NCBI GenBank assembly: GCA_018903055.1 | Contig: JAHIPW010000020.1 | Location: forward strand, 1-6,206 | Length of the DNA: 6,206 bases | From: DRGV01 sp018903055 [NCBI: bacterium] | GTDB lineage: Bacteria; UBP18; UBA7526 | Direction: 5' to 3' | Shown: positions 2-5,873 of the stretch, one piece after another | Position numbering within the stretch: the first letter of the stretch is position 1 | Layout: the number at the start of each line of letters is the position of its first letter | Notes under the pieces: model-generated | What the model was told of the DNA's origin: nothing | Database searches by the model: none | The model's input: only the letters and a program-made list of their open reading frames with translations | Translations under genes and position numbers: made by a program

Positions 2-103
2 CTTAAAGGTTGCGTTGAAAAATCAAATATTACCCCGAGAAATTTGGAGAATTTCCGGGACTACGTCCTCGGAATCTTTTCAAGATTCCAGAGGGAAAAT
101 TAA
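2..103 (+). CDS. Possible C-terminal end of an unidentified protein (5' part outside the window)
   Basis: An open frame enters from the left edge and runs 33 codons to a TAA at 101-103. The residues look protein-like: a charged start (LKGCVEK), then a likely amphipathic helix (NLENFRDYVLGIFSRFQREN). I do not recognise the family and assign no function. The caveat is that the second half of this frame coincides with strong inverted repeats at 55-94, so the stretch could instead be non-coding structured DNA that happens to be open. The frame is short enough to be chance. It would lie upstream of mtnA on the same strand, separated by about 215 bp of repeat-rich DNA. Confidence 0.35.
   Translation, partial: LKGCVEKSNITPRNLENFRDYVLGIFSRFQREN
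55..94. repeat. Two overlapping, mutually exclusive stem-loops
   Basis: Hairpin A (55-72) is CCGGGAC, loop TAC, then GTCC-t-CGG with one bulged T. Hairpin B (67-94) is CCTCGGAATCTT, loop TTC, then AAGATTCC-a-GAGG, a 12-bp stem with one bulged A. The two share 67-72, so only one can form at a time. No T-run follows on the + strand, so this is not a classical intrinsic terminator. It could be a palindromic repeat or a 3'-end processing structure of the upstream transcript. Confidence 0.45.
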
Positions 104-160
104 ATATCAAAATGATTTAGCACAGCACAGATACACATTAATAGAGTAAGCATAAGTTAA

Positions 161-217
161 ATTTTACATTTTGTCCGTCTTAGACGGATCATTTTACATT
201 TTCATTTTTGATTTTTG
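161..217. repeat. A/T-rich array with about 7-bp period, interrupted by a palindrome
   Basis: The units are attttac (161-167), attttg (168-173), attttac (191-197), attttc (198-203), atttttg (204-210) and atttttg (211-217). The 12-mer attttacatttt occurs at 161-172 and again at 191-202, on either side of the palindrome at 174-188. This gives the appearance of a small element inserted into, or amplified within, the array. Confidence 0.6.
174..188. repeat. Small GC-rich palindrome TCCGTC-tta-GACGGA
   Basis: This is a perfect 6-bp stem with a 3-nt loop, embedded between two copies of attttacatttt. It resembles the palindromes at 254-273 (TCCGCC/GGCGGA) and 4307-4331 (TGCCTG/CAGGCA) in size and placement. 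No T-tract suited to a terminator follows it directly on either strand. Confidence 0.5.
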
Positions 218-242
218 ACATTGCGCTGTATCATCTGATACG
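215..242 (+). promoter_or_regulatory. Tentative sigma-70 promoter upstream of mtnA
   Basis: A consensus -35 box TTGACA (215-220) is followed after 16 bp by GATACG (237-242), which matches the -10 consensus at only three positions. The -35 lies at the end of the T-rich array, which could produce it by chance. If real, transcription would start near 249-250, giving a leader of about 70 nt. The palindrome at 221-252 would then occupy the spacer and -10 and could act as an operator. Confidence 0.25.
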
Positions 243-252
243 AGTAGCGCAA
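221..252. promoter_or_regulatory. Long inverted repeat upstream of mtnA (operator-like or hairpin)
   Basis: TTGCGCTGTATCA (221-233), loop TC, then TGATAC (236-241), a 4-nt bulge GAGT, then AGCGCAA (246-252). This makes a 13-bp stem in two blocks. The inner part GTATCAtcTGATAC is a perfect dyad of the type bound by dimeric repressors, and it sits directly after a TTGACA hexamer. It may instead be an RNA hairpin. Its right arm overlaps the next hairpin (247-280), so the two would compete in RNA. Confidence 0.45.
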
Positions 253-280
253 CTCCGCCAAACTTACGGCGGACAGGCGC
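247..280. repeat. Palindromic element GCGC-TCCGCC / GGCGGA-GCGC
   Basis: GCGC (247-250), internal loop aac, TCCGCC (254-259), 8-nt loop, GGCGGA (268-273), internal loop cag, GCGC (277-280). The direct repeat gcgcaac occurs at both ends (247-253 and 277-283). The segment ggcggacaggc (268-278) matches ggcagacaggc (4320-4330) at 10 of 11 bases, suggesting a dispersed palindrome family. Confidence 0.45.
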
Positions 281-304
281 AACCGATAGACGTTTCATAT
301 TTAT

Positions 305-309
305 AGGAG
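305..309 (+). promoter_or_regulatory. Ribosome binding site deciding the mtnA start
   Basis: AGGAG lies 9 nt before ATG 319. It directly abuts the upstream in-frame TTG at 310, leaving that codon with no spacing, so ATG 319 is the better start. Confidence 0.7.
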
Positions 310-318
310 TTGGAGCAA

Positions 319-1353
319 ATGAGAACCGTTTGGTGGTCTAAGAATAGAGTTAAACTCATTGATCAGACGAAACTTCCCTTCAAGACAGAAGTCCTGGAAT
401 TTCGCGATTATAGAAAGTTGGCCAGAGCAATAAAAGAGATGAGGCTGAGGGGGGCGCCCGCCATTGGGGTGGCCACTGCCTTAGGGATTGCCCTGGGGAT
501 AAATCATTCAAAGGCATCCTCCTTTAGGGAATTATCTAAAGAATTGGATAGAACAATAAAGACCTTTCAAGGGACAAGACCAACTGCGGTCAACCTCTTC
601 TGGGCCTGTCGGAGGATGAAAAAGAAATTTCGAGAGAATAGAGGTAAAAGTCCCAAAGAGATTAAGAGAATATTGGTTCAGGAGGCAAAGAGAATTACTC
701 AGGAGGATATAGATTGTTGTAAAAGAATAGGAGAATTGGGGGCTTCTTTAATTAAAAAAGGGGATTCTATTCTTACCCATTGTAATGCCGGCGCCTTAGC
801 AACTGCAGGTTATGGAACTGCTTTGGGAGTAATTAAGAAGGCCCATGAAGAGGGTAAGAGGATTAAGGTCTTTATAGATGAGACTCGTCCCAGGCTTCAG
901 GGAGCAAGACTCACTACCTGGGAGTTAAAGAGAGAAGGGATTCCTTTTACTCTCATTACTGATAATATGGCCGGCTACTTCATGAAGAAGAAAGAGATTG
1001 ACTTGGTCATTGTAGGAGCAGATAGAATCGCCGGAAATGGCGATGTAGCAAATAAGATCGGAACCTATCCCTTGGCGGTCTTAGCCAAGGAGCATAAGAT
1101 TCCTTTCTATGTTGCGGCTCCTACCTCAACCATTGATTTGAGACTTCCCTCTGGCAATAGGATACCCATTGAAGAGAGGAATACCAGGGAAGTGACCCAT
1201 ATGGGAGGCAGAGCCTTGGTTCCTAAAGGGACAAAGGCTGCTAATCCTGCCTTCGATCTCACTCCCAATAGGTATATCAAGGCCATCATCACAGAGAAGG
1301 GGATTGCCCGAAGACCTTACAGGCAGAGCTTGAGGAAAATCTGTGGTTGGTGA
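319..1353 (+). CDS. mtnA: S-methyl-5-thioribose-1-phosphate isomerase
   Basis: MtnA converts the aldose 5-methylthioribose-1-phosphate to the ketose 5-methylthioribulose-1-phosphate, a cytosolic step of methionine salvage. It belongs to the eIF2B alpha/beta/delta-like fold. The 344-residue product is full length for the family. Visible motifs are RGAPAIGVA (44-52), RPTAVNLFWA (87-96), THCNAGALAT with the candidate catalytic Cys155, ETRPRLQGARLT (188-199), and VGADRIAGNGDVANKIGTY with the catalytic Asp235. The Cys-Asp spacing of 80 equals that of the characterised Bacillus enzyme (Cys160/Asp240). The start is ATG 319 with AGGAG 9 nt upstream; an in-frame TTG at 310 lies too close to that site. 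No other salvage gene is in the window, so MtnA may serve a shortened pathway or partner with genes elsewhere. The TGA stop is the first three bases of an octamer array. Confidence 0.96.
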   Translation: MRTVWWSKNRVKLIDQTKLPFKTEVLEFRDYRKLARAIKEMRLRGAPAIGVATALGIALGINHSKASSFRELSKELDRTIKTFQGTRPTAVNLFWACRRMKKKFRENRGKSPKEIKRILVQEAKRITQEDIDCCKRIGELGASLIKKGDSILTHCNAGALATAGYGTALGVIKKAHEEGKRIKVFIDETRPRLQGARLTTWELKREGIPFTLITDNMAGYFMKKKEIDLVIVGADRIAGNGDVANKIGTYPLAVLAKEHKIPFYVAAPTSTIDLRLPSGNRIPIEERNTREVTHMGGRALVPKGTKAANPAFDLTPNRYIKAIITEKGIARRPYRQSLRKICGW

Positions 1354-1381
1354 TCAGGTTATCAGGTGATCAGGTGATCAG
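1351..1381. repeat. Octamer tandem array tgatcagg overlapping the mtnA stop
   Basis: The units are tgatcagg (1351-1358), ttatcagg (1359-1366), tgatcagg (1367-1374) and tgatcag (1375-1381), so 3.9 copies with one substitution. The mtnA TGA stop is the start of unit 1. Each full unit carries the palindrome TGATCA except the second. The motif resembles the reverse complement of the heptamer array inside ileS (ggtgatc-type). Confidence 0.85.
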
Positions 1382-1424
1382 AAACCAAACTACTCAGTAA
1401 TATCTAAAGTAAATCATCAATAAT

Positions 1425-1453
1425 TTGACTTTTTCTACTATAGATGCTATACT
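1425..1453 (+). promoter_or_regulatory. Extended -10 sigma-70-type promoter for ileS
   Basis: The elements are -35 TTGACT (1425-1430), a 17-bp spacer, and -10 TATACT (1448-1453) preceded by TG at 1445-1446 (extended -10). Start of transcription is expected near 1460. That leaves about 9 nt before ATG 1469 but about 27 nt before ATG 1487, which favours the second as the ileS start. A leader this short has no room for a T-box riboswitch. Confidence 0.75.
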
Positions 1454-1486
1454 AAATAAATTACCCCTATGGAAAAGAAAAAGAAG

Positions 1487-4264
1487 ATGAATTACAATAA
1501 AACCCTCTGTTTACCCAAAACGAAATTTCCCATGAAGGCCGAGCTTTCCAAGAGAGAGCCGGAGATACTCTCTCTCTGGGATAAAGTAGACATCTATGAG
1601 AAGATAAGGGAGAAGAGGAAAGGGGCCAAGAAGTATATCTTGCACGATGGCCCCCCCTATGCCAATGGGGATGTCCACATCGGGACCGCCCTCAATAAAA
1701 TTTTGAAGGATATCATCATTAAGTTCAAGACCATGTCTGGTCTCGATGCCCCCTTTGTTCCTGGCTGGGACTGCCATGGTCTTCCTATAGAGCACCAGGT
1801 GATGAAGCTTATGGGTGTAGAGGGCTTGAAAATTTCCCAGATAGAGATTAGAGAGAGATGTCAGGAGTATGCTAAGAGATATATCGATATTCAGAGAAAG
1901 CAGTTCAAGAGATTAGGAGTCTTCGGTGACTGGGAAAAGCCATATCTTACGTTAGATTTTGAATACGAAGCAAAGATTATAGAGGTCTTTGGTCGACTCG
2001 TCGAGGATGGCTATATCTATAAAAGGAAGAAACCCATCCACTGGTGTCCTACCTGCAAGACTGCCTTAGCAGAAGCAGAATTGGAATATAAAGACCATAC
2101 CTCTCCTTCCATCAACGTCAAATTCAAACTCCTCCACCCTGACCGATCACCGATCACCGATTACCGATTACCGATTTATATTATCATCTGGACCACCACT
2201 CCCTGGACACTCCTGGGCAATGTGGCCATTGCCTTCCACCCCAATCTTGATTACCAACTCCTTAAAATAAAAGATGAGATATTTATTATGCTTAAGGAGC
2301 TTGTTCCTTCCACTATGGAAAGAATGGGAATAAAGGACTTTGAAATGTTGGATACCATTAAAGGGAGTAAATTTGAGGGATTGGAATGCCAGCATCCTTT
2401 TTTGGATAGGAGATCAAGGCTTATCTTAGCAGACTATATTACCAAGGAGGAGGGGACGGGCTGTGTTCATACTGCACCGGGGCATGGAGAAGAGGATTAC
2501 CGGAGTGGAGTGAAGTATGGTCTACCCATCCTTTCGCCCGTGAATGAGAGAGGGGAGTTTACTGAAGAGGCCGGAGAGCTTAAAGGTCAGAATGTCTTTA
2601 AAGCGAATGAAAGAATCATTAAGAAACTAAAAGAGACCGGGAATCTAATCTATGAGGGAACTCTTATCCATTCCTATCCCCATTGTTGGAGGTGCAAGAA
2701 GCCGGTTATCTTTCGGGCAACAGAGCAATGGTTCATTTCCCTGGACCATAAGAATTTAAGGGCCAGAGCTCTTTCTTCCATAGATGAGGTAGAATGGATC
2801 CCGGATTGGGGCAGATCACGCATCAGGGGAATGGTGGGGGTGAGGCCTGACTGGTGCATCTCAAGGCAGAGGGCCTGGGGGGTTCCCCTTCCCGTATTCT
2901 ACTGTAAAAAGTGCCATCACTACCTGGCAAGTAAGGGGAGCCTGAAAGCGGTTAAGGAATTGATGAAAAGGGAGGGCTCTGATGGCTGGTTTAAAAAAGA
3001 GGTAGACGAGATTCTTCCTCAAGGAACCAGGTGTTCCGAATGTGGAGGAGGAAATTTTGAAAAGGAGACCGATATCTTAGATGTCTGGTTTGAGTCCGGG
3101 GTGAGCCACCAGGCGGTATTGACTACCAGAGAAGAACTATCCTATCCTTCTGACCTCTACTTAGAGGGAAGCGACCAGCATAGAGGATGGTTCCAGAGTT
3201 CTCTATTGACCGCCATAGGATGTGAAGAGAGGCCTCCCTATAAATCAGTTCTCACCCATGGCTTTATGGTGGATGGAGAGGGAAAGAAGATGTCCAAGTC
3301 CTTAGGGAATCTCATCTCCTCTGAGGAGATGGTCGAAAGGAGAGGGGCAGATATCACTCGGCTCTGGGTGGCTTCTGAGAATTACCAGGAGGATGTTGCC
3401 TATTCTGACGAGATAATGGAGAGGATGCAAGAGGCCTATCGCAGAATAAGAAATACCTTCCGCTATCTCCTGGGGAACCTCTATGACTTCGATCTCCAGA
3501 AGAACGAAATAAAATATGATGAAATGCTGGAAATAGATAGATGGGTCCTTTCCCAGTTGCAGGGTCTCCTGGATAAAGTGACCAATGCCTACCATAACTT
3601 TTCCTTCTACCAGTTCTATCATCTGGTCCACAACTTCTGCGCCATTCAGCTATCTTCTTTTTACTTCGATATCCTGAAAGATAGGTTATATACCCAGGGG
3701 AAGGATTCTTTGGAAAGACGTTCTGCCCAGACTGCTCTATATGAGATACTCCTGGTTTTAGTAAAGATTATGGCTCCTATCCTTCCCTATACCACAGAGG
3801 AGGTCTGGAATTACCTTTCCAGTAAGGAAGAGGAAAGCGTCCATCTCTCTGACTGGCCAAAGATAAATGAGAGATTCGTAAATAAAAAATTGGAAGAGAG
3901 ATGGGAGAGATTAATCTCCATCAGGGAGATGGTCTTAACCTCTTTAGAGAAGGCCCGGAAGGAGAAGAGGATAGGTAACTCTTTAGAAGCAGAGGTGGAG
4001 ATCCATTCCAAAAAAGAATATGAGTTCTTAAAAGAGTATGAAAAGAATCTTCCTGCCTTATTCATCGTTTCTGGAATAAGGTTGGTATTGGCAGAGGAAG
4101 AGGGTGAGGAGATAGTGGTCAAGGTGGGAAAAGCATCGGGAGAGAAGTGCAGCCGCTGCTGGAACTACTCAACAGAAGTGGGAAAAAGTAAAGAGCATTC
4201 TACCCTCTGCCCGAGGTGTATCAGAGTCATTAAGAAATACTACCAGGAGAAAGTGGGAAAGTGA
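1487..4264 (+). CDS. ileS: Isoleucyl-tRNA synthetase
   Basis: This cytosolic class I synthetase charges tRNA-Ile and edits misactivated valine. The 925 residues match the bacterial length. The N-terminus MNYNKTLCLPKTKFPM is family-typical. The HIGH motif reads HIGT (64-67), followed by a long match to family sequence ending GWDCHGLPIE. The CP1 editing domain shows WTTTPWT and HTAPGHGEEDY. KMSKS is at 601-605. The C-terminal zinc finger has Cys888, Cys891, Cys908 and Cys911. An in-frame ATG at 1469 would add six residues (MEKKKK), but it lacks a Shine-Dalgarno and sits about 9 nt from the predicted transcription start. ATG 1487 has a weak purine-rich site (GGAAAAG, 1471-1477), so 1487 is preferred. 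Residues about 219-230 are encoded by a heptamer repeat. The stop lies inside an octamer array. Four downstream genes follow on the same strand. Confidence 0.97.
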   Translation: MNYNKTLCLPKTKFPMKAELSKREPEILSLWDKVDIYEKIREKRKGAKKYILHDGPPYANGDVHIGTALNKILKDIIIKFKTMSGLDAPFVPGWDCHGLPIEHQVMKLMGVEGLKISQIEIRERCQEYAKRYIDIQRKQFKRLGVFGDWEKPYLTLDFEYEAKIIEVFGRLVEDGYIYKRKKPIHWCPTCKTALAEAELEYKDHTSPSINVKFKLLHPDRSPITDYRLPIYIIIWTTTPWTLLGNVAIAFHPNLDYQLLKIKDEIFIMLKELVPSTMERMGIKDFEMLDTIKGSKFEGLECQHPFLDRRSRLILADYITKEEGTGCVHTAPGHGEEDYRSGVKYGLPILSPVNERGEFTEEAGELKGQNVFKANERIIKKLKETGNLIYEGTLIHSYPHCWRCKKPVIFRATEQWFISLDHKNLRARALSSIDEVEWIPDWGRSRIRGMVGVRPDWCISRQRAWGVPLPVFYCKKCHHYLASKGSLKAVKELMKREGSDGWFKKEVDEILPQGTRCSECGGGNFEKETDILDVWFESGVSHQAVLTTREELSYPSDLYLEGSDQHRGWFQSSLLTAIGCEERPPYKSVLTHGFMVDGEGKKMSKSLGNLISSEEMVERRGADITRLWVASENYQEDVAYSDEIMERMQEAYRRIRNTFRYLLGNLYDFDLQKNEIKYDEMLEIDRWVLSQLQGLLDKVTNAYHNFSFYQFYHLVHNFCAIQLSSFYFDILKDRLYTQGKDSLERRSAQTALYEILLVLVKIMAPILPYTTEEVWNYLSSKEEESVHLSDWPKINERFVNKKLEERWERLISIREMVLTSLEKARKEKRIGNSLEAEVEIHSKKEYEFLKEYEKNLPALFIVSGIRLVLAEEEGEEIVVKVGKASGEKCSRCWNYSTEVGKSKEHSTLCPRCIRVIKKYYQEKVGK
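2143..2176. repeat. Heptamer tandem array within the ileS editing domain
   Basis: The units are ccgatca (2143-2149), ccgatca (2150-2156), ccgatta (2157-2163), ccgatta (2164-2170) and ccgatt (2171-2176). In the ileS frame it reads about DRSPITDYRLPIY (219-231), just before the conserved IWTTTPWT block. Linker length here varies among IleRS proteins, so the array occupies a tolerant loop. The frame stays open because neither repeat type introduces a stop in any of the three phases used. Confidence 0.85.
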
Positions 4265-4277
4265 AAAAGTGGGAAAG
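4250..4277. repeat. Octamer array aaagtggg across the ileS stop codon
   Basis: The units are aaagtggg (4250-4257), aaagtgaa (4258-4265), aaagtggg (4266-4273) and aaag (4274-4277). The TGA stop (4262-4264) lies in the variant second unit; the consensus unit would read through (TGG). The last IleRS residues (KVGK) are therefore repeat-encoded. Confidence 0.75.
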
Positions 4278-4288
4278 AAGATCAGTGA

Positions 4289-4337
4289 AAAATGCAAAAT
4301 GCAAAGTGCCTGCCTCGTCGGCAGACAGGCAAAATGC
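4289..4337. repeat. aaaatgc heptamers split by a GC-rich palindrome
   Basis: The units are aaaatgc (4289-4295), aaaatgc (4296-4302) and aaagtgc (4303-4309). Then comes a palindrome with TGCCTG (4307-4312) pairing CAGGCA (4326-4331), plus two inner pairs after a C-A mismatch. One more aaaatgc follows at 4331-4337. The arrangement of a palindrome between copies of the same short repeat is the same as at 161-203. Confidence 0.7.
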
Positions 4338-4348
4338 AAAACGGGTTT

Positions 4349-4381
4349 CAATGTTCAATGCTAAATGCTCAATGTAAAATG
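4349..4381. repeat. Heptamer array caatgtt/caatgct before the small membrane protein gene
   Basis: The units are caatgtt (4349-4355), caatgct (4356-4362), aaatgct (4363-4369), caatgta (4370-4376) and aaatg (4377-4381). The array ends where a purine-rich GAAGGAG (4381-4387) begins. With the two preceding arrays, repeats make up most of the 142-bp gap between ileS and the next gene. Confidence 0.75.
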
Positions 4382-4406
4382 AAGGAGAATAGGAGAGTAA
4401 AAGAAA

Positions 4407-4736
4407 ATGGAAGAGAAAGAAATTAAAAAAGAGGAAGAGGTTAAAACGTTAGAGAAATTAAAGACTACGGTGCAGGGACTATCCGAGCACTTAGAGAAAT
4501 TGAGAAGCGAGTATGTGGAACTCTTCAAGAAACCTCGAAAGTTCATCTGGATGAACCTTTTTTTAGGGATCGTACGTGGGGTAGGGATGTTTATTGGAAT
4601 GGCGGTCTTGGGTGCTATCTTGGTTGCTATTGGTACGATGATTATGAAAAAAGGAGAAGCTCTTCCAGTAATTGGAGAATTTTTTGCCAAGATCAATCAG
4701 GTACTGGATCAGGTACTGAAGACGAGTGGTAAGTAA
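4407..4736 (+). CDS. Small membrane protein, DUF5665-like
   Basis: A 109-residue protein. Residues 1-40 are highly charged and likely helical or coiled coil (EEKEIKKEEEV, then LEKLK...LSEHLEKLRSEYVELF). The segment YVELFKKPRKFIWMNLFLG (36-54) leads into a hydrophobic span (about 47-80) rich in Gly and Ala, followed by a short amphipathic tail (81-109). From memory, the YVEL..PR..W.N...G..RG.G pattern and the layout match DUF5665, a family of unknown function; no search was run. A single membrane segment with a cytoplasmic N-terminus is predicted from the positive charges before it. ATG 4407 follows AGGAG (4391-4395) by 11 nt. It sits between ileS and a DksA-like gene, in the same orientation as lspA and lgt, which hints at an envelope-related role, but no function can be claimed. 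Confidence 0.8.
   Translation: MEEKEIKKEEEVKTLEKLKTTVQGLSEHLEKLRSEYVELFKKPRKFIWMNLFLGIVRGVGMFIGMAVLGAILVAIGTMIMKKGEALPVIGEFFAKINQVLDQVLKTSGK
4696..4719. repeat. In-frame 12-bp tandem duplication in the small membrane protein gene
   Basis: atcaggtactgg (4696-4707) is followed directly by atcaggtactga (4708-4719), 11 of 12 identical. It produces the QVLD-QVLK repeat near the C-terminus (98-105). The core atcaggt is shared with the octamer array after mtnA. Confidence 0.7.
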
Positions 4737-4740
4737 AGGT

Positions 4741-4798
4741 CTCTGAAAAAAGTTTCAGAGCCCTCTAATCAGAGATTTCGGACTTTTTCAGAAATCTC
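4741..4798 (+). promoter_or_regulatory. Tandem stem-loops with an alternative pairing, before the DksA-like gene
   Basis: Stem-loop 1 is CTCTGAAA (4741-4748), loop AAAG, TTTCAGAG (4753-4760). Stem-loop 2 is GAGATTTC (4772-4779), 11-nt loop, GAAATCTC (4791-4798). CTGAAAAAAGT (4743-4753) can also pair with ACTTTTTCAG (4782-4791) with one bulged A, disrupting both. The structures begin 4 nt after the upstream stop and end 3 nt before the Shine-Dalgarno of the next gene. No T-run follows, so mRNA processing, stability or attenuation is more likely than simple termination. Confidence 0.5.
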
Positions 4799-4816
4799 AA
4801 GTAAGGAGGAAACAAA

Positions 4817-5191
4817 ATGAGAAAGAAGAGTTTAGAATATTATAAGAAGAAGCTTTTAAAATTGAGGGATAGTTTGGTGGAGGAGATCAAGCAGCTAGAA
4901 GAAAGGTCTCTTTCTAAAACCCAGAGGGATGCTTCGGGAGACCTCTCTGGTTATTCCTTCCATATGGCCGATGTTGCTACTGCAAGTCATGAGAGGGAGA
5001 AAGCCTTGAACTTGAGGGGAAGCGAAGAGAACCTACTCTACAAGGTGGATCAGGCCCTATATCGCATTGAGAAGAAAACCTATGGCCTCTGTATTCAGTG
5101 TCAGCGAAAGATTGACAAGAAGAGACTGAATGCCATTCCCTATGCTGATCTATGTATCAAATGTCAGGCGAAGCAGGAGAAGAAAACCTGA
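4817..5191 (+). CDS. DksA/TraR-family C4 zinc-finger protein
   Basis: A 124-residue cytosolic protein. The N-terminal half (1-85) is charged and helical, as in the coiled coil of DksA/TraR proteins. The C-terminal half has a complete zinc finger, Cys92-x2-Cys95-x17-Cys113-x2-Cys116, with the family context YGLC...RLNAIPYADLCIKC. Family members enter the RNA polymerase secondary channel and tune initiation, often with ppGpp. The tip motif of E. coli DksA (DxxDxA) is replaced by HMADVAT (49-55). The central Asp52 and Ala54 remain but the first acid is His49. This is the HxAD pattern of shorter TraR/YteA-like members, so strict DksA activity is not assured and no symbol is given. The start is ATG 4817 with TAAGGAGG (4802-4809) 7 nt upstream, the strongest Shine-Dalgarno in the window. 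The stop overlaps the lspA start. Confidence 0.93.
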   Translation: MRKKSLEYYKKKLLKLRDSLVEEIKQLEERSLSKTQRDASGDLSGYSFHMADVATASHEREKALNLRGSEENLLYKVDQALYRIEKKTYGLCIQCQRKIDKKRLNAIPYADLCIKCQAKQEKKT

Positions 5192-5634
5192 TGTCCCTCT
5201 TGCTCCTGGCAGCTATCGTCCTCATTTTAGATCAGATATCAAAGTTCATCATCTGTCGAATCATACTACCTGGGGGATCGTTCCCGGTTATTGAAAATGT
5301 CTTCTATCTTACCCATGTTCAGAATAAAGGGGCAGCCTTCGGCCTCTTCCCTAATCAGACACTATTCTTCATTATTGTTACCTTGTTTACCATCCTCCTC
5401 ATTCTCTTCTTTCACCAGAGGATTTCCAAAGAAGGAAGTTCCCCTTCCTGGGCGTTGGGCCTCATTCTGGGAGGTGCGTTGGGGAATTTAATAGATAGGA
5501 TAAGATTAAAAGCAGTCATCGATTTCTTAGATTTTAGCCTGAAGGGTTACCATTGGCCATCCTTTAATATTGCAGACTCCGCTATCACTATTGGAGCAGT
5601 AATCCTCTTCATTTCCTTATTCCGCAAGAAATAA
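5191..5634 (+). CDS. lspA: Lipoprotein signal peptidase (signal peptidase II)
   Basis: This is the inner-membrane aspartyl protease that removes signal peptides from diacylglyceryl-modified prolipoproteins. The 147 residues are close to the family length. Four hydrophobic segments fit the known topology (about 2-21, 56-75, 85-100, 129-144). Signature motifs are LDQISK (13-18), QNKGAAFG (44-51), GNLIDR with catalytic Asp102, and FNIADS with catalytic Asp129. The chosen ATG 5191 shares its A with the TGA of the DksA-like gene (TGATG), and AGGAG (5175-5179) lies 11 nt upstream. An in-frame ATG at 5152 would add 13 polar residues before the first membrane segment and overlap the upstream gene by 40 bp, so it is rejected. 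Overlap implies translational coupling. Together with lgt downstream it supplies the two early lipoprotein maturation steps. Confidence 0.96.
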   Translation: MSLLLLAAIVLILDQISKFIICRIILPGGSFPVIENVFYLTHVQNKGAAFGLFPNQTLFFIIVTLFTILLILFFHQRISKEGSSPSWALGLILGGALGNLIDRIRLKAVIDFLDFSLKGYHWPSFNIADSAITIGAVILFISLFRKK

Positions 5635-5648
5635 TACGAGAATAAGAA

Positions 5649-5680
5649 TCTGCACTACGCGCAGAACCTTGTTTCTTCGC
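5649..5680 (+). terminator. Weak terminator-like hairpin after lspA
   Basis: TCTGC (5649-5653), 7-nt loop, GCAGA (5661-5665), followed by a broken T-rich stretch (ccttgtttcttc, 5667-5678). The stem is only 5 bp and the T-run is interrupted, so termination here would be inefficient at best, and read-through into lgt is plausible. Confidence 0.25.
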
Positions 5681-5704
5681 TAACACTTAGAAATAAGAGA
5701 ATAA

Positions 5705-5814
5705 TTGGTAGTTGGGTTAGGGTAAAGTAGTGGGTTTGGTAGTTGGGTAAGGGTTAGGTGTTTTTTAAAAAGACCAACTACCTAACCAAACAACCAAACT
5801 AACAACCTAACCTT
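5705..5814. repeat. Strand-asymmetric G/T arm and A/C arm with inverted-repeat and G-quadruplex potential
   Basis: The left arm has the direct repeat ttggtagttgggt[t/a]aggg at 5705-5722 and 5736-5753 (17 of 18 identical). Five GGG runs start at 5714, 5720, 5732, 5745 and 5751, fitting a G-quadruplex on the + strand. No C occurs from 5687 to 5773. After T6A5 (centre 5766/5767), the right arm has no G from 5773 to 5814 and is made of aacc/aaacc-type units. Arms can pair: ggttaggt (5752-5759) with acctaacc (5780-5787), and ggtagttgg (5738-5746) with ccaactacc (5774-5782). It fills most of the lspA-lgt gap (239 bp). Confidence 0.75.
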
Positions 5815-5835
5815 GACCGTAACCCAATGATTTAG

Positions 5836-5858
5836 CAACTTATCAACTTATCAACTTA
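5836..5858. repeat. Octamer array caacttat before lgt
   Basis: The units are caacttat (5836-5843), caacttat (5844-5851) and caactta (5852-5858), a perfect period of 8. It ends 3 nt before the AAGGAG ribosome binding site of lgt (5862-5867). Confidence 0.8.
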
Positions 5859-5873
5859 ATTAAGGAGCTATGA

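What the first reader, a model, noticed from the sequence alone, without database searches (positions are those of the whole stretch)
104..5858. Short tandem arrays of 7-8 bp period in almost every intergenic gap
Seen: arrays at 161-217 (7 bp), 1351-1381 (8), 4250-4277 (8), 4289-4337 (7), 4349-4381 (7) and 5836-5858 (8). Unit sequences differ but the period is nearly constant. Arrays often abut gene signals: stop codons on the left, Shine-Dalgarno sites on the right. Known: cyanobacteria carry heptameric STRR repeats spread through the genome. Inference: this genome hosts a comparable process that makes or spreads arrays by period rather than by sequence, perhaps replication slippage or an unknown amplifying activity.
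Basis: partly seen in the sequence, partly recalled or inferred. Interest (0 to 1): 0.65.

Follow-up and report, generated by a model that had tools for sequence, protein, structure and literature searches.

The report
Short repeat arrays between bacterial genes
A little-known group of bacteria (candidate phylum UBP18) has many gaps between genes filled with short 7-8 base repeats, a good part of them halves of small hairpin-shaped DNA elements that turn up at unrelated places, although the three kinds of mobile-DNA enzyme searched for were not found.

Summary
In 204 kb of this genome (window plus 40 of 191 contigs) tandem arrays are frequent at period 7 (29), 8 (21) and 14 (23), with none at 1-6. 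Three sister genomes show the same; 400 kb from 17 control genomes has none at 7-8. "Almost every gap" is too strong: 168 of 476 gaps. The best period-7 array of the window lies inside ileS and was missed.

"Period rather than sequence" is half right. 71% of arrays share an exact 10-mer with an array elsewhere in the same genome (25% after unit shuffling). Four in ten intergenic arrays have a complementary partner nearby, and several such pairs are dispersed palindromes of about 80-130 bp. The one at 5705-5827 has 14 close copies at unrelated sites in four genomes; its site is empty in three sisters. Orthologous gaps are mostly either near-identical or replaced; some sites, ileS included, carry different units of the same period.

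No Y1, DDE_Tnp_1 or reverse-transcriptase match was found in six genomes; MutS1 has no match in any of them. Best reading: locally born heptamer arrays, dispersed as miniature palindromes by a copying process not identified here.

The parts
5705..5827 (+). Dispersed palindromic element (family a): left arm GGTAGTTGGGTTAGGG..., T/A loop, right arm ...CCTAACCTTGACC; 14 close copies (85-96% to the family consensus) found, this one included
   Evidence: DNA fold z -3.16
5635..5873 (+). Whole lspA-lgt gap (5641-5704 element, family a, period-8 array); in G002, G003 and G004 lspA and lgt are almost adjacent, with none of this DNA
5832..5858 (+). Period-8 array TTATCAAC x3.4, directly after family a and before the lgt start
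1349..1381 (+). Period-8 array GGTGATCA x4.1 at the 3' end of mtnA; its surroundings (1349-1420) do not fold better than shuffles
2142..2176 (+).
4249..4277 (+). Period-8 array GAAAGTGG x3.6 across the ileS stop codon
4289..4340 (+). AAAATGC-type period-7 array interrupted by a GC-rich hairpin (4308-4330); similar pieces at G003 L121:8442-8506 and G004 L177:4834-4893 (88%)
4347..4381 (+). Period-7/14 array TTCAATG / AATGCTCAATGCAA; similar piece at G000 L037:1987-2047 (85%)
96..253 (+). AT-rich array region (ATTTTACATTTT...) with dispersed relatives at 64-83% and a nested hairpin TCCGTC-TTA-GACGGA at 174-188; its fold is not significant (99-247, z -1.0)
33..95 (+). GC-rich segment present here and absent from the matching stretch of G003 (L076, about 12650-12880)
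   Evidence: read by eye from the sequences; hits
4737..4806 (+). Double hairpin with 11 dispersed matches, no tandem array
   Evidence: z -4.09
5641..5704 (+). Dispersed element AAGAAYC-[stem-loop]-GAACCTTGTTT...; stem differs between copies and often stays self-complementary

Best explanation
Two coupled processes act on the DNA of these UBP18 genomes. (1) Local birth: a 7-8 (sometimes 10) bp stretch with a few bases of flanking microhomology is duplicated to about 4-5 units, in gaps and, in frame, inside genes. (2) Dispersal: such arrays, many as inverted pairs that form imperfect hairpins, exist as miniature interspersed palindromes of about 80-130 bp that are copied to unrelated sites and replace gap DNA. 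Shown: periods, families, dispersal, inverted pairing, replacement, an empty site for the window's own element, the copy-number mode of period-7 arrays, two single-unit 8-bp indels. Inferred: the microhomology start; that copying is done by replication template switching or by recombination between diverged repeats and not by a dedicated transposase; and that missing MutS1 lets diverged copies recombine. A cell function for the arrays is not needed to explain them and none was found.
For: Period peaks in four genomes of one family, none in controls. Shared vocabulary 0.71 against 0.25. Inverted partner near 44%, 45% and 41% of gap arrays in G000, G001 and G003 (n 79, 73, 113) against 5% expected. 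Array gaps fold with median z -3.44 (34 gaps, G000), -2.77 (28, G001), -2.22 (50, G003); control gaps without arrays -0.38 (86). Family a: 14 close copies (17 rows less 2 duplicates and one 70% relative) in G000 (6), G001 (3), G003 (2), G004 (3); comparison of their flanks gave only short matches of 30-59 bp, none gene-like. In 386 genomes it matched four UBP18 genomes and, weakly over 33 bp, G250. The gap holding it is absent from 3 of 3 sampled sisters with lspA-lgt. Dispersed same-genome matches cover 27%, 27%, 29% and 19% of gap bases in G000, G001, G003, G004. Syntenic G003/G004 gaps are bimodal: of 31 pairs 12 are above 0.8 identity, 16 below 0.6, 3 between; conserved at flank identity 85-90% 0 of 10, 90-95% 4 of 9, 95% or more 7 of 9, 70-85% 1 of 3. 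Copy-number mode. Two 8-bp unit indels; in one the extra unit lengthens the exact complement of the other arm. No PF01797, PF00078 or PF01609 match in 6 genomes; among 1005 ORFs of four genomes only four same-genome pairs, none in three copies, and the three pairs sampled are HD/response-regulator, PD-(D/E)XK nuclease and glycosyltransferase genes. MutS1 no match in 6 of 6, against 350 of 386 genomes with one. Sense strand not more stable than antisense (85 of 156, p 0.27).
Against: No target-site duplication or precise end could be defined for the array palindromes, the lspA-lgt site included. Only three mobile-enzyme families were searched over whole genomes, so another transposase is not excluded. 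MutS1 loss is one event in one clade; of the five non-UBP18 genomes with more than ten hits of the AATCYGTG motif only G188 lacks it, while G336, G314, G029 and G176 have it. SbcD, also without a match in 6 of 6, is missing in 174 of 386 genomes and so says little. MutS1 loss would rather raise 1-4 bp arrays (recalled), which are absent. Family a shows 0 of 42 pairs with compensatory change. Flanks are self-complementary for family a (0.35 of 17 rows, two of them duplicates), h (0.40 of 5), j (0.33 of 3), e (0.14 of 7) and none of the other six families, so nesting is not general. The ten families were picked because they looked inverted. Of six window stretches folded, only 5705-5828 and 4737-4806 beat all shuffles.
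Confidence: 0.5

Rival explanations
1. Replication slippage alone: 7-8 nt is the favoured slip length of the replicative polymerase (footprint idea for bacterial heptamers), and everything else is drift.
For: Heptamers are reported as over-represented long simple repeats in many bacteria and a polymerase-contact length was proposed for them (Mrazek 2007, seen only as cited in passages of PMC4692102 and PMC4679880). Single-unit 8-bp indels between sisters. Perfect period-7 arrays inside ORFs peak at 31-34 bp, as expected for +21 nt in frame. No perfect period-7 gap array is longer than 27 bp.
Against: Dispersed copies at unrelated sites, inverted pairing, shared vocabulary, whole-gap replacement; copy-number mode at 4.0-4.5 also in period-7 gap arrays, where frame does not matter.
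Confidence: 0.15
2. Classical MITEs mobilised by an undetected transposase (other IS families or a lost autonomous partner).
For: Terminal-inverted-repeat elements coexist: CCCGCACCTTT...AAAGGTGCGGG with a clean empty site and ATGAA on both sides, CCCCGTTAGA...TCTAACGGGG. Dispersal, palindromes and the empty lspA-lgt site fit MITEs.
Against: No PF01797, PF00078, PF01609 match in 6 genomes and no ORF in three or more same-genome copies in the sample. No constant ends or target duplication seen for array palindromes; arms are tandem, which typical MITEs are not (recalled).
Confidence: 0.2
3. Selected RNA hairpins between genes of operons (terminators, processing or stability elements), with tandem arms an easy way to build them.
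For: Arrays sit in 156 of 415 co-directional, 5 of 30 convergent, 7 of 31 divergent gaps; families b-f lie mostly in one orientation to the genes, 32 to 7. The AAGAACC/GAACCTTGTTT element often keeps complementary stems of different sequence.
Against: Sense not more stable than antisense in array gaps (85 of 156), unlike control gaps (49 of 77, p 0.01); no compensatory changes in family a; arrays also inside genes; no Rfam match up to E 1 in the window.
Confidence: 0.15
4. Assembly or binning artefact of metagenome-assembled genomes.
For: All six genomes are incomplete draft assemblies in many contigs.
Against: Same periods in four separately assembled genomes, including a 252-kb contig of G003; arrays of about 30 bp are short; the ileS array is in frame in five genomes.
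Confidence: 0.02

Closest known systems
STRR heptamers of cyanobacteria (recalled, and as cited) and GGGAATC / GGGGA(T/C)T heptamers of Xanthomonas and Nostoc (PMC4692102, passages read)
   Same: Heptamer tandem arrays; [quoted passage not shown]
   Different: The paper treats one G-rich unit type per organism; here many unit types, periods 7, 8 and 10, arms of dispersed palindromes of about 100 bp, and whole-gap replacement
TAACTGA direct repeats of marine Beggiatoaceae (PMC4679880; abstract, section 8 and passages read)
   Same: Heptamer repeats spread over a genome, also in cyanobacteria and Bacteroidetes, some within ORFs
   Different: One unit whose single-base variants are rarely repeated there; here variants are common
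REP/REPIN elements with RAYT transposase (PMC3733652 and PMC3116915 seen in search listings only; RAYT recalled)
   Same: Short intergenic palindromes at many sites without their own gene
   Different: No Y1 transposase match in 6 genomes; arms are tandem arrays
MITEs (recalled)
   Same: Miniature dispersed inverted-repeat elements; ordinary TIR elements also occur here
   Different: No constant ends, target duplication or related transposase found for the array palindromes
Small dispersed repeats of cyanobacteria (Elhai et al., seen only as cited in a passage of PMC2884548)
   Same: Very small dispersed repeats thought to be mobile
   Different: About 20 bp there; paper not read

Membership tests
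Long simple sequence repeats (heptamer SSR/STRR) | Excess of tandem arrays at period 7 over neighbouring periods | tested here: met
Long simple sequence repeats (heptamer SSR/STRR) | One or a few fixed unit sequences per genome | tested here: not met
   period-7 arrays of 28 bp or more in four genomes: 26 canonical units among 50 ORF-interior arrays, 11 among 13 at ORF ends, 44 among 91 in gaps; one-base variants counted apart
REP/REPIN | RAYT/Y1 transposase in the genome | tested here: not met
   PF01797 0 of 6 genomes, controls 5 of 14
REP/REPIN | 20-40 bp palindrome with a GTAG or CGTC tag | not tested
   feature taken from title and abstract of PMC3733652 in a search listing; elements here are about 80-130 bp
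MITE | Dispersed copies at non-orthologous sites, no coding capacity | tested here: met
MITE | Constant terminal inverted repeats with target-site duplication | tested here: inconclusive
   ends of family a drift between copies and the empty lspA-lgt site shows no clear duplication; one TIR element, not an array palindrome, has ATGAA on both sides at an empty site
MITE | Autonomous partner transposon | tested here: inconclusive
   none found with PF01609 and ORF paralogy; other transposase families not searched
RNA hairpin element (terminator, riboregulator) | Structure kept by compensatory changes or sense-strand bias | tested here: not met
   for array gaps and family a; the separate AAGAACC element often keeps complementary stems

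The most novel reading that the evidence does not exclude
UBP18 genomes host a class of transposase-free spreading palindromes whose arms are four-to-five-unit heptamer or octamer arrays: the architecture (period, unit number, spacing such as 10-12-10, inverted layout) is handed on while the unit itself is exchanged, as in CACGGAT and CGCAGAT elements with the same spacing at one orthologous gap of G003 and G004 and at the ileS site. Copying would run through hairpin template switching and recombination between diverged repeats in a MutS1-less background.
Probability: 0.2. Interest if true: 0.85.

Novelty: new variant of a known kind. Interest (0 to 1): 0.6.

Why it matters
If right, a bacterial family renews much of its intergenic DNA, and loops of essential proteins such as IleRS, with small repeat palindromes so fast that 0 of 10 gaps compared at 85-90% flank identity were still alignable above 0.8, apparently without the commoner transposases. 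That would make the old question why bacterial long simple repeats favour seven bases testable by comparing clades with and without the process, and would offer a source of new peptide insertions and operon spacers.

Tried and rejected
Doubling model (7 to 14 to 28 bp): a first look favoured ABAB unit order, but with arrays chosen only by their base period it vanished (8 of 24, p 0.58; 10 of 24, p 0.25). Dropped.

Loss of the hairpin nuclease SbcCD as cause: SbcD has no match in 6 of 6 but is also missing in 174 of 386 genomes. Not informative.

Nesting of new elements in loops of older hairpins: seen for family a and in part h, j and e, not the other six. Not generalised.

RNA function: no sense-strand bias in array gaps and no covariation in family a. 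Rfam: no match at E up to 1 in the window.

Relative L108 (G003) looked like an orthologous lspA-lgt gap with changed letters; it is another gap, since lspA and lgt have no match in that locus.

A deviating inner unit in four-unit arms (seen by eye) was not claimed, because TRF trims deviating end units and so favours inner ones.

Papers: searches for heptamer, STRR, UBP18, palindrome and small-dispersed-repeat terms listed no description of these elements among the rows shown; the library is open-licence only. Mrazek 2007 is not held.
Full report
What the window is. It is contig C185 of genome G000 (1,085,295 bases, 191 contigs, 85% complete). Pfam on its ORFs: IF-2B family (mtnA by my reading), a class I tRNA synthetase with the IleRS zinc finger (ileS), DUF5665, a dksA/traR zinc-finger protein, signal peptidase II (lspA) and the start of LGT (lgt). 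I therefore place the window in candidate phylum UBP18 by inference.

The observation. TRF confirms the arrays in the window, with corrections given under the observation check. In 203,848 bp of G000 (24,835 of them N) the period counts are 7:29, 8:21, 9:5, 10:15, 14:23, 16:7, 21:10 and zero at 1-6, shuffles at most 1.2. G001 (203,748 bp), G003 (461,530 bp) and G004 (250,829 bp) repeat this. A threshold-free autocorrelation of gap DNA peaks at 7, 8 and 14 in G000, G001 and G003 but not in controls; at 21 controls are slightly raised too, and the ORF line for G000 is inflated by runs of N. Controls: 400 kb from 17 other genomes, no array of period 7 or 8. Arrays lie in 168 of 476 gaps of 50-400 bp, and a third of all arrays lie in ORFs called by a simple rule (51 of 159 in G000).

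Families. Of 487 arrays in four genomes 71% share an exact 10-mer with an array elsewhere in the same genome, against 25% when units are shuffled but arrays kept; ORF arrays do so as often as gap arrays (0.70 and 0.72). A 20-kb stretch of G003 gave short intergenic matches at many other places of five sister genomes. 75 of 104 gaps of the G000 sample have matches elsewhere in the sample (some are orthologous gaps), and same-genome matches cover 19-29% of gap bases.

Palindromes. Read by eye, many gaps are an array, a short loop, and the complementary array. Counted without choosing, 44%, 45% and 41% of gap arrays in G000, G001 and G003 have a complementary stretch within 150 bp above the 95th percentile of shuffled flanks; direct copies 18-23%. 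ORF arrays: 17%, 47% and 14%, so G001 is an exception. Array gaps fold far better than shuffles, but UBP18 gaps without a called array also do (medians -1.6 to -2.0), control gaps -0.38.

Family a, the element at window 5705-5827, has 14 close copies: G000 6, G001 3, G003 2, G004 3, two of them covering about three quarters of the consensus. Flanks of up to 500 bp share only short pieces of 30-59 bp between copies, which are other repeats by their look. In 386 genomes four UBP18 genomes matched and G250 over 33 bp (where at most two candidates per genome were scored). Its 12 aligned copies have a mean column identity of 86% and 42 predicted pairs, none with compensatory change: the palindrome is copied, not kept by pair-wise selection. 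The gap that holds it is an insertion relative to G002, G003 and G004, where lspA and lgt are nearly adjacent; no duplication at its ends is evident. Ten families that I picked because they looked inverted were examined; families b to f are mostly in one orientation to the genes (32 to 7), a and g in both.

Replacement and turnover. Of 31 syntenic G003/G004 gap pairs (both at least 50 bp) 12 are above 0.8 identity, 16 below 0.6 and 3 between; conservation goes with flank identity (0 of 10 at 85-90%, 4 of 9 at 90-95%, 7 of 9 at 95% or more). In 27 comparisons of G000 gaps with G001, G003 and G004 none is above 0.8. Where gaps are alignable, two differ by one 8-bp unit; in one of them the extra unit makes the arm a longer exact complement of the other arm. 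Read by eye, the gap after ileS has a different array set in G000, G001 and G005, a shared one in G003 and G004, and a short related piece in G002.

Inside genes. At one loop of IleRS just before WTTTPWTL, G000 has ACCGATT, G002 and G003 ACCGTTC-like, G004 ACCGATC and G005 CCTAAGT/CCAAAGT units, all of period 7 and in frame (the G001 contig starts after the site). Of 114 arrays inside ORFs 50 have a best match in another sampled genome: 17 are insertions, 24 aligned but diverged, 9 conserved; some of these pairs are not orthologs but other tRNA synthetases, so the 17 is an upper bound. Two more sites carry different heptamers in the matched genes (CCTGAAG and AAAATGC; AAAAATT and AGTTAGG).

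Copy number. Free slippage should give falling counts with length (inference). Period-7 gap arrays instead peak at 4.0-4.5 copies (57 of 168; one per unit 20 of 69), ORF-interior ones at 4.5-5.0 (27 of 105) besides many two-copy ones; for period 8 in gaps the mode is weak (25 of 134 at 4.0-4.5, 24 at 2.5-3.0; one per unit 20 of 82), and period 10 has its mode at 2.0-2.5. Perfect period-7 arrays in ORFs peak at 31-34 bp (21, against 12 at 22-30 bp), which keeping the frame (+21 nt) can explain; the gap peak it cannot.

Enzymes. No PF01797, PF00078 or PF01609 match at E 0.001 in the six genomes (controls positive in 5, 3 and 9 of 14). Four same-genome ORF pairs above 55% identity exist in the sample, none in three copies; members of three pairs are HD/response-regulator, PD-(D/E)XK nuclease and glycosyltransferase genes, the fourth was not scanned. 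MutS1 has no match in 6 of 6, where 350 of 386 genomes have one; SbcD has none either, but this is common. Recalled, not tested: MutS blocks recombination between diverged repeats, which is why its loss is part of my explanation.

Reach. The unit AATCYGTGNN, followed by itself, occurs in 30 of 386 genomes, five of them UBP18 (G002 has none), among the others G188 (94 hits), G336 (71) and G314 (37); the reversed control is zero except in G348. Four-copy elements with CACGGAT or CGCAGAT units share spacing 10-12-10 (7 loci), those with CACAGAT mostly 10-11-10 (6 loci): the layout stays while the unit changes.

Verdict. The arrays are best seen as locally born heptamer-type repeats, a good part of them arms of miniature dispersed palindromes. 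How they are copied is inferred, not shown.

Noticed in passing
window 5641-5704; 34 regex matches in 4 of 5 sampled genomes: Dispersed element AAGAACC-[stem-loop]-GAACCTTGTTTT with at least seven different stems (TGACTTCGTCA, TCCGATTTCATCGGA, TGCCTTCGGCA, TCGCTTCGCGA, TGCGCTACGCGCA and others) that often stay self-complementary between constant flanks.
   Followed up: partly
L109:5293 against L167:9504; L165:8205; further pairs: TIR elements CCCGCACCTTT...AAAGGTGCGGG, start-to-start distance of the ends about 34-123 bp, interiors differ; one clean empty site with ATGAA on both sides.
   Followed up: partly
window 4737-4806: Double hairpin with 11 dispersed matches; in another copy (G001 L124, about 14815-15010) the two halves are apart with other sequence between.
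   Followed up: no
L069:1338-1432, L042:2822-2991 and others: CCCCGTTAGA...TCTAACGGGG elements, 24 end motifs in the G000 sample.
   Followed up: no
genomes G000-G005, G188: MutS1 (TIGR01070) without a match in all six UBP18 genomes and in the motif-rich genome G188.
   Followed up: partly
G348: The reversed control pattern gave 52 hits in this genome only, so it may carry a dispersed repeat of its own.
   Followed up: no
G003 against G004 contigs: Flank identity of syntenic gaps varies from about 79 to 100% from place to place, as if parts had recombined recently.
   Followed up: no
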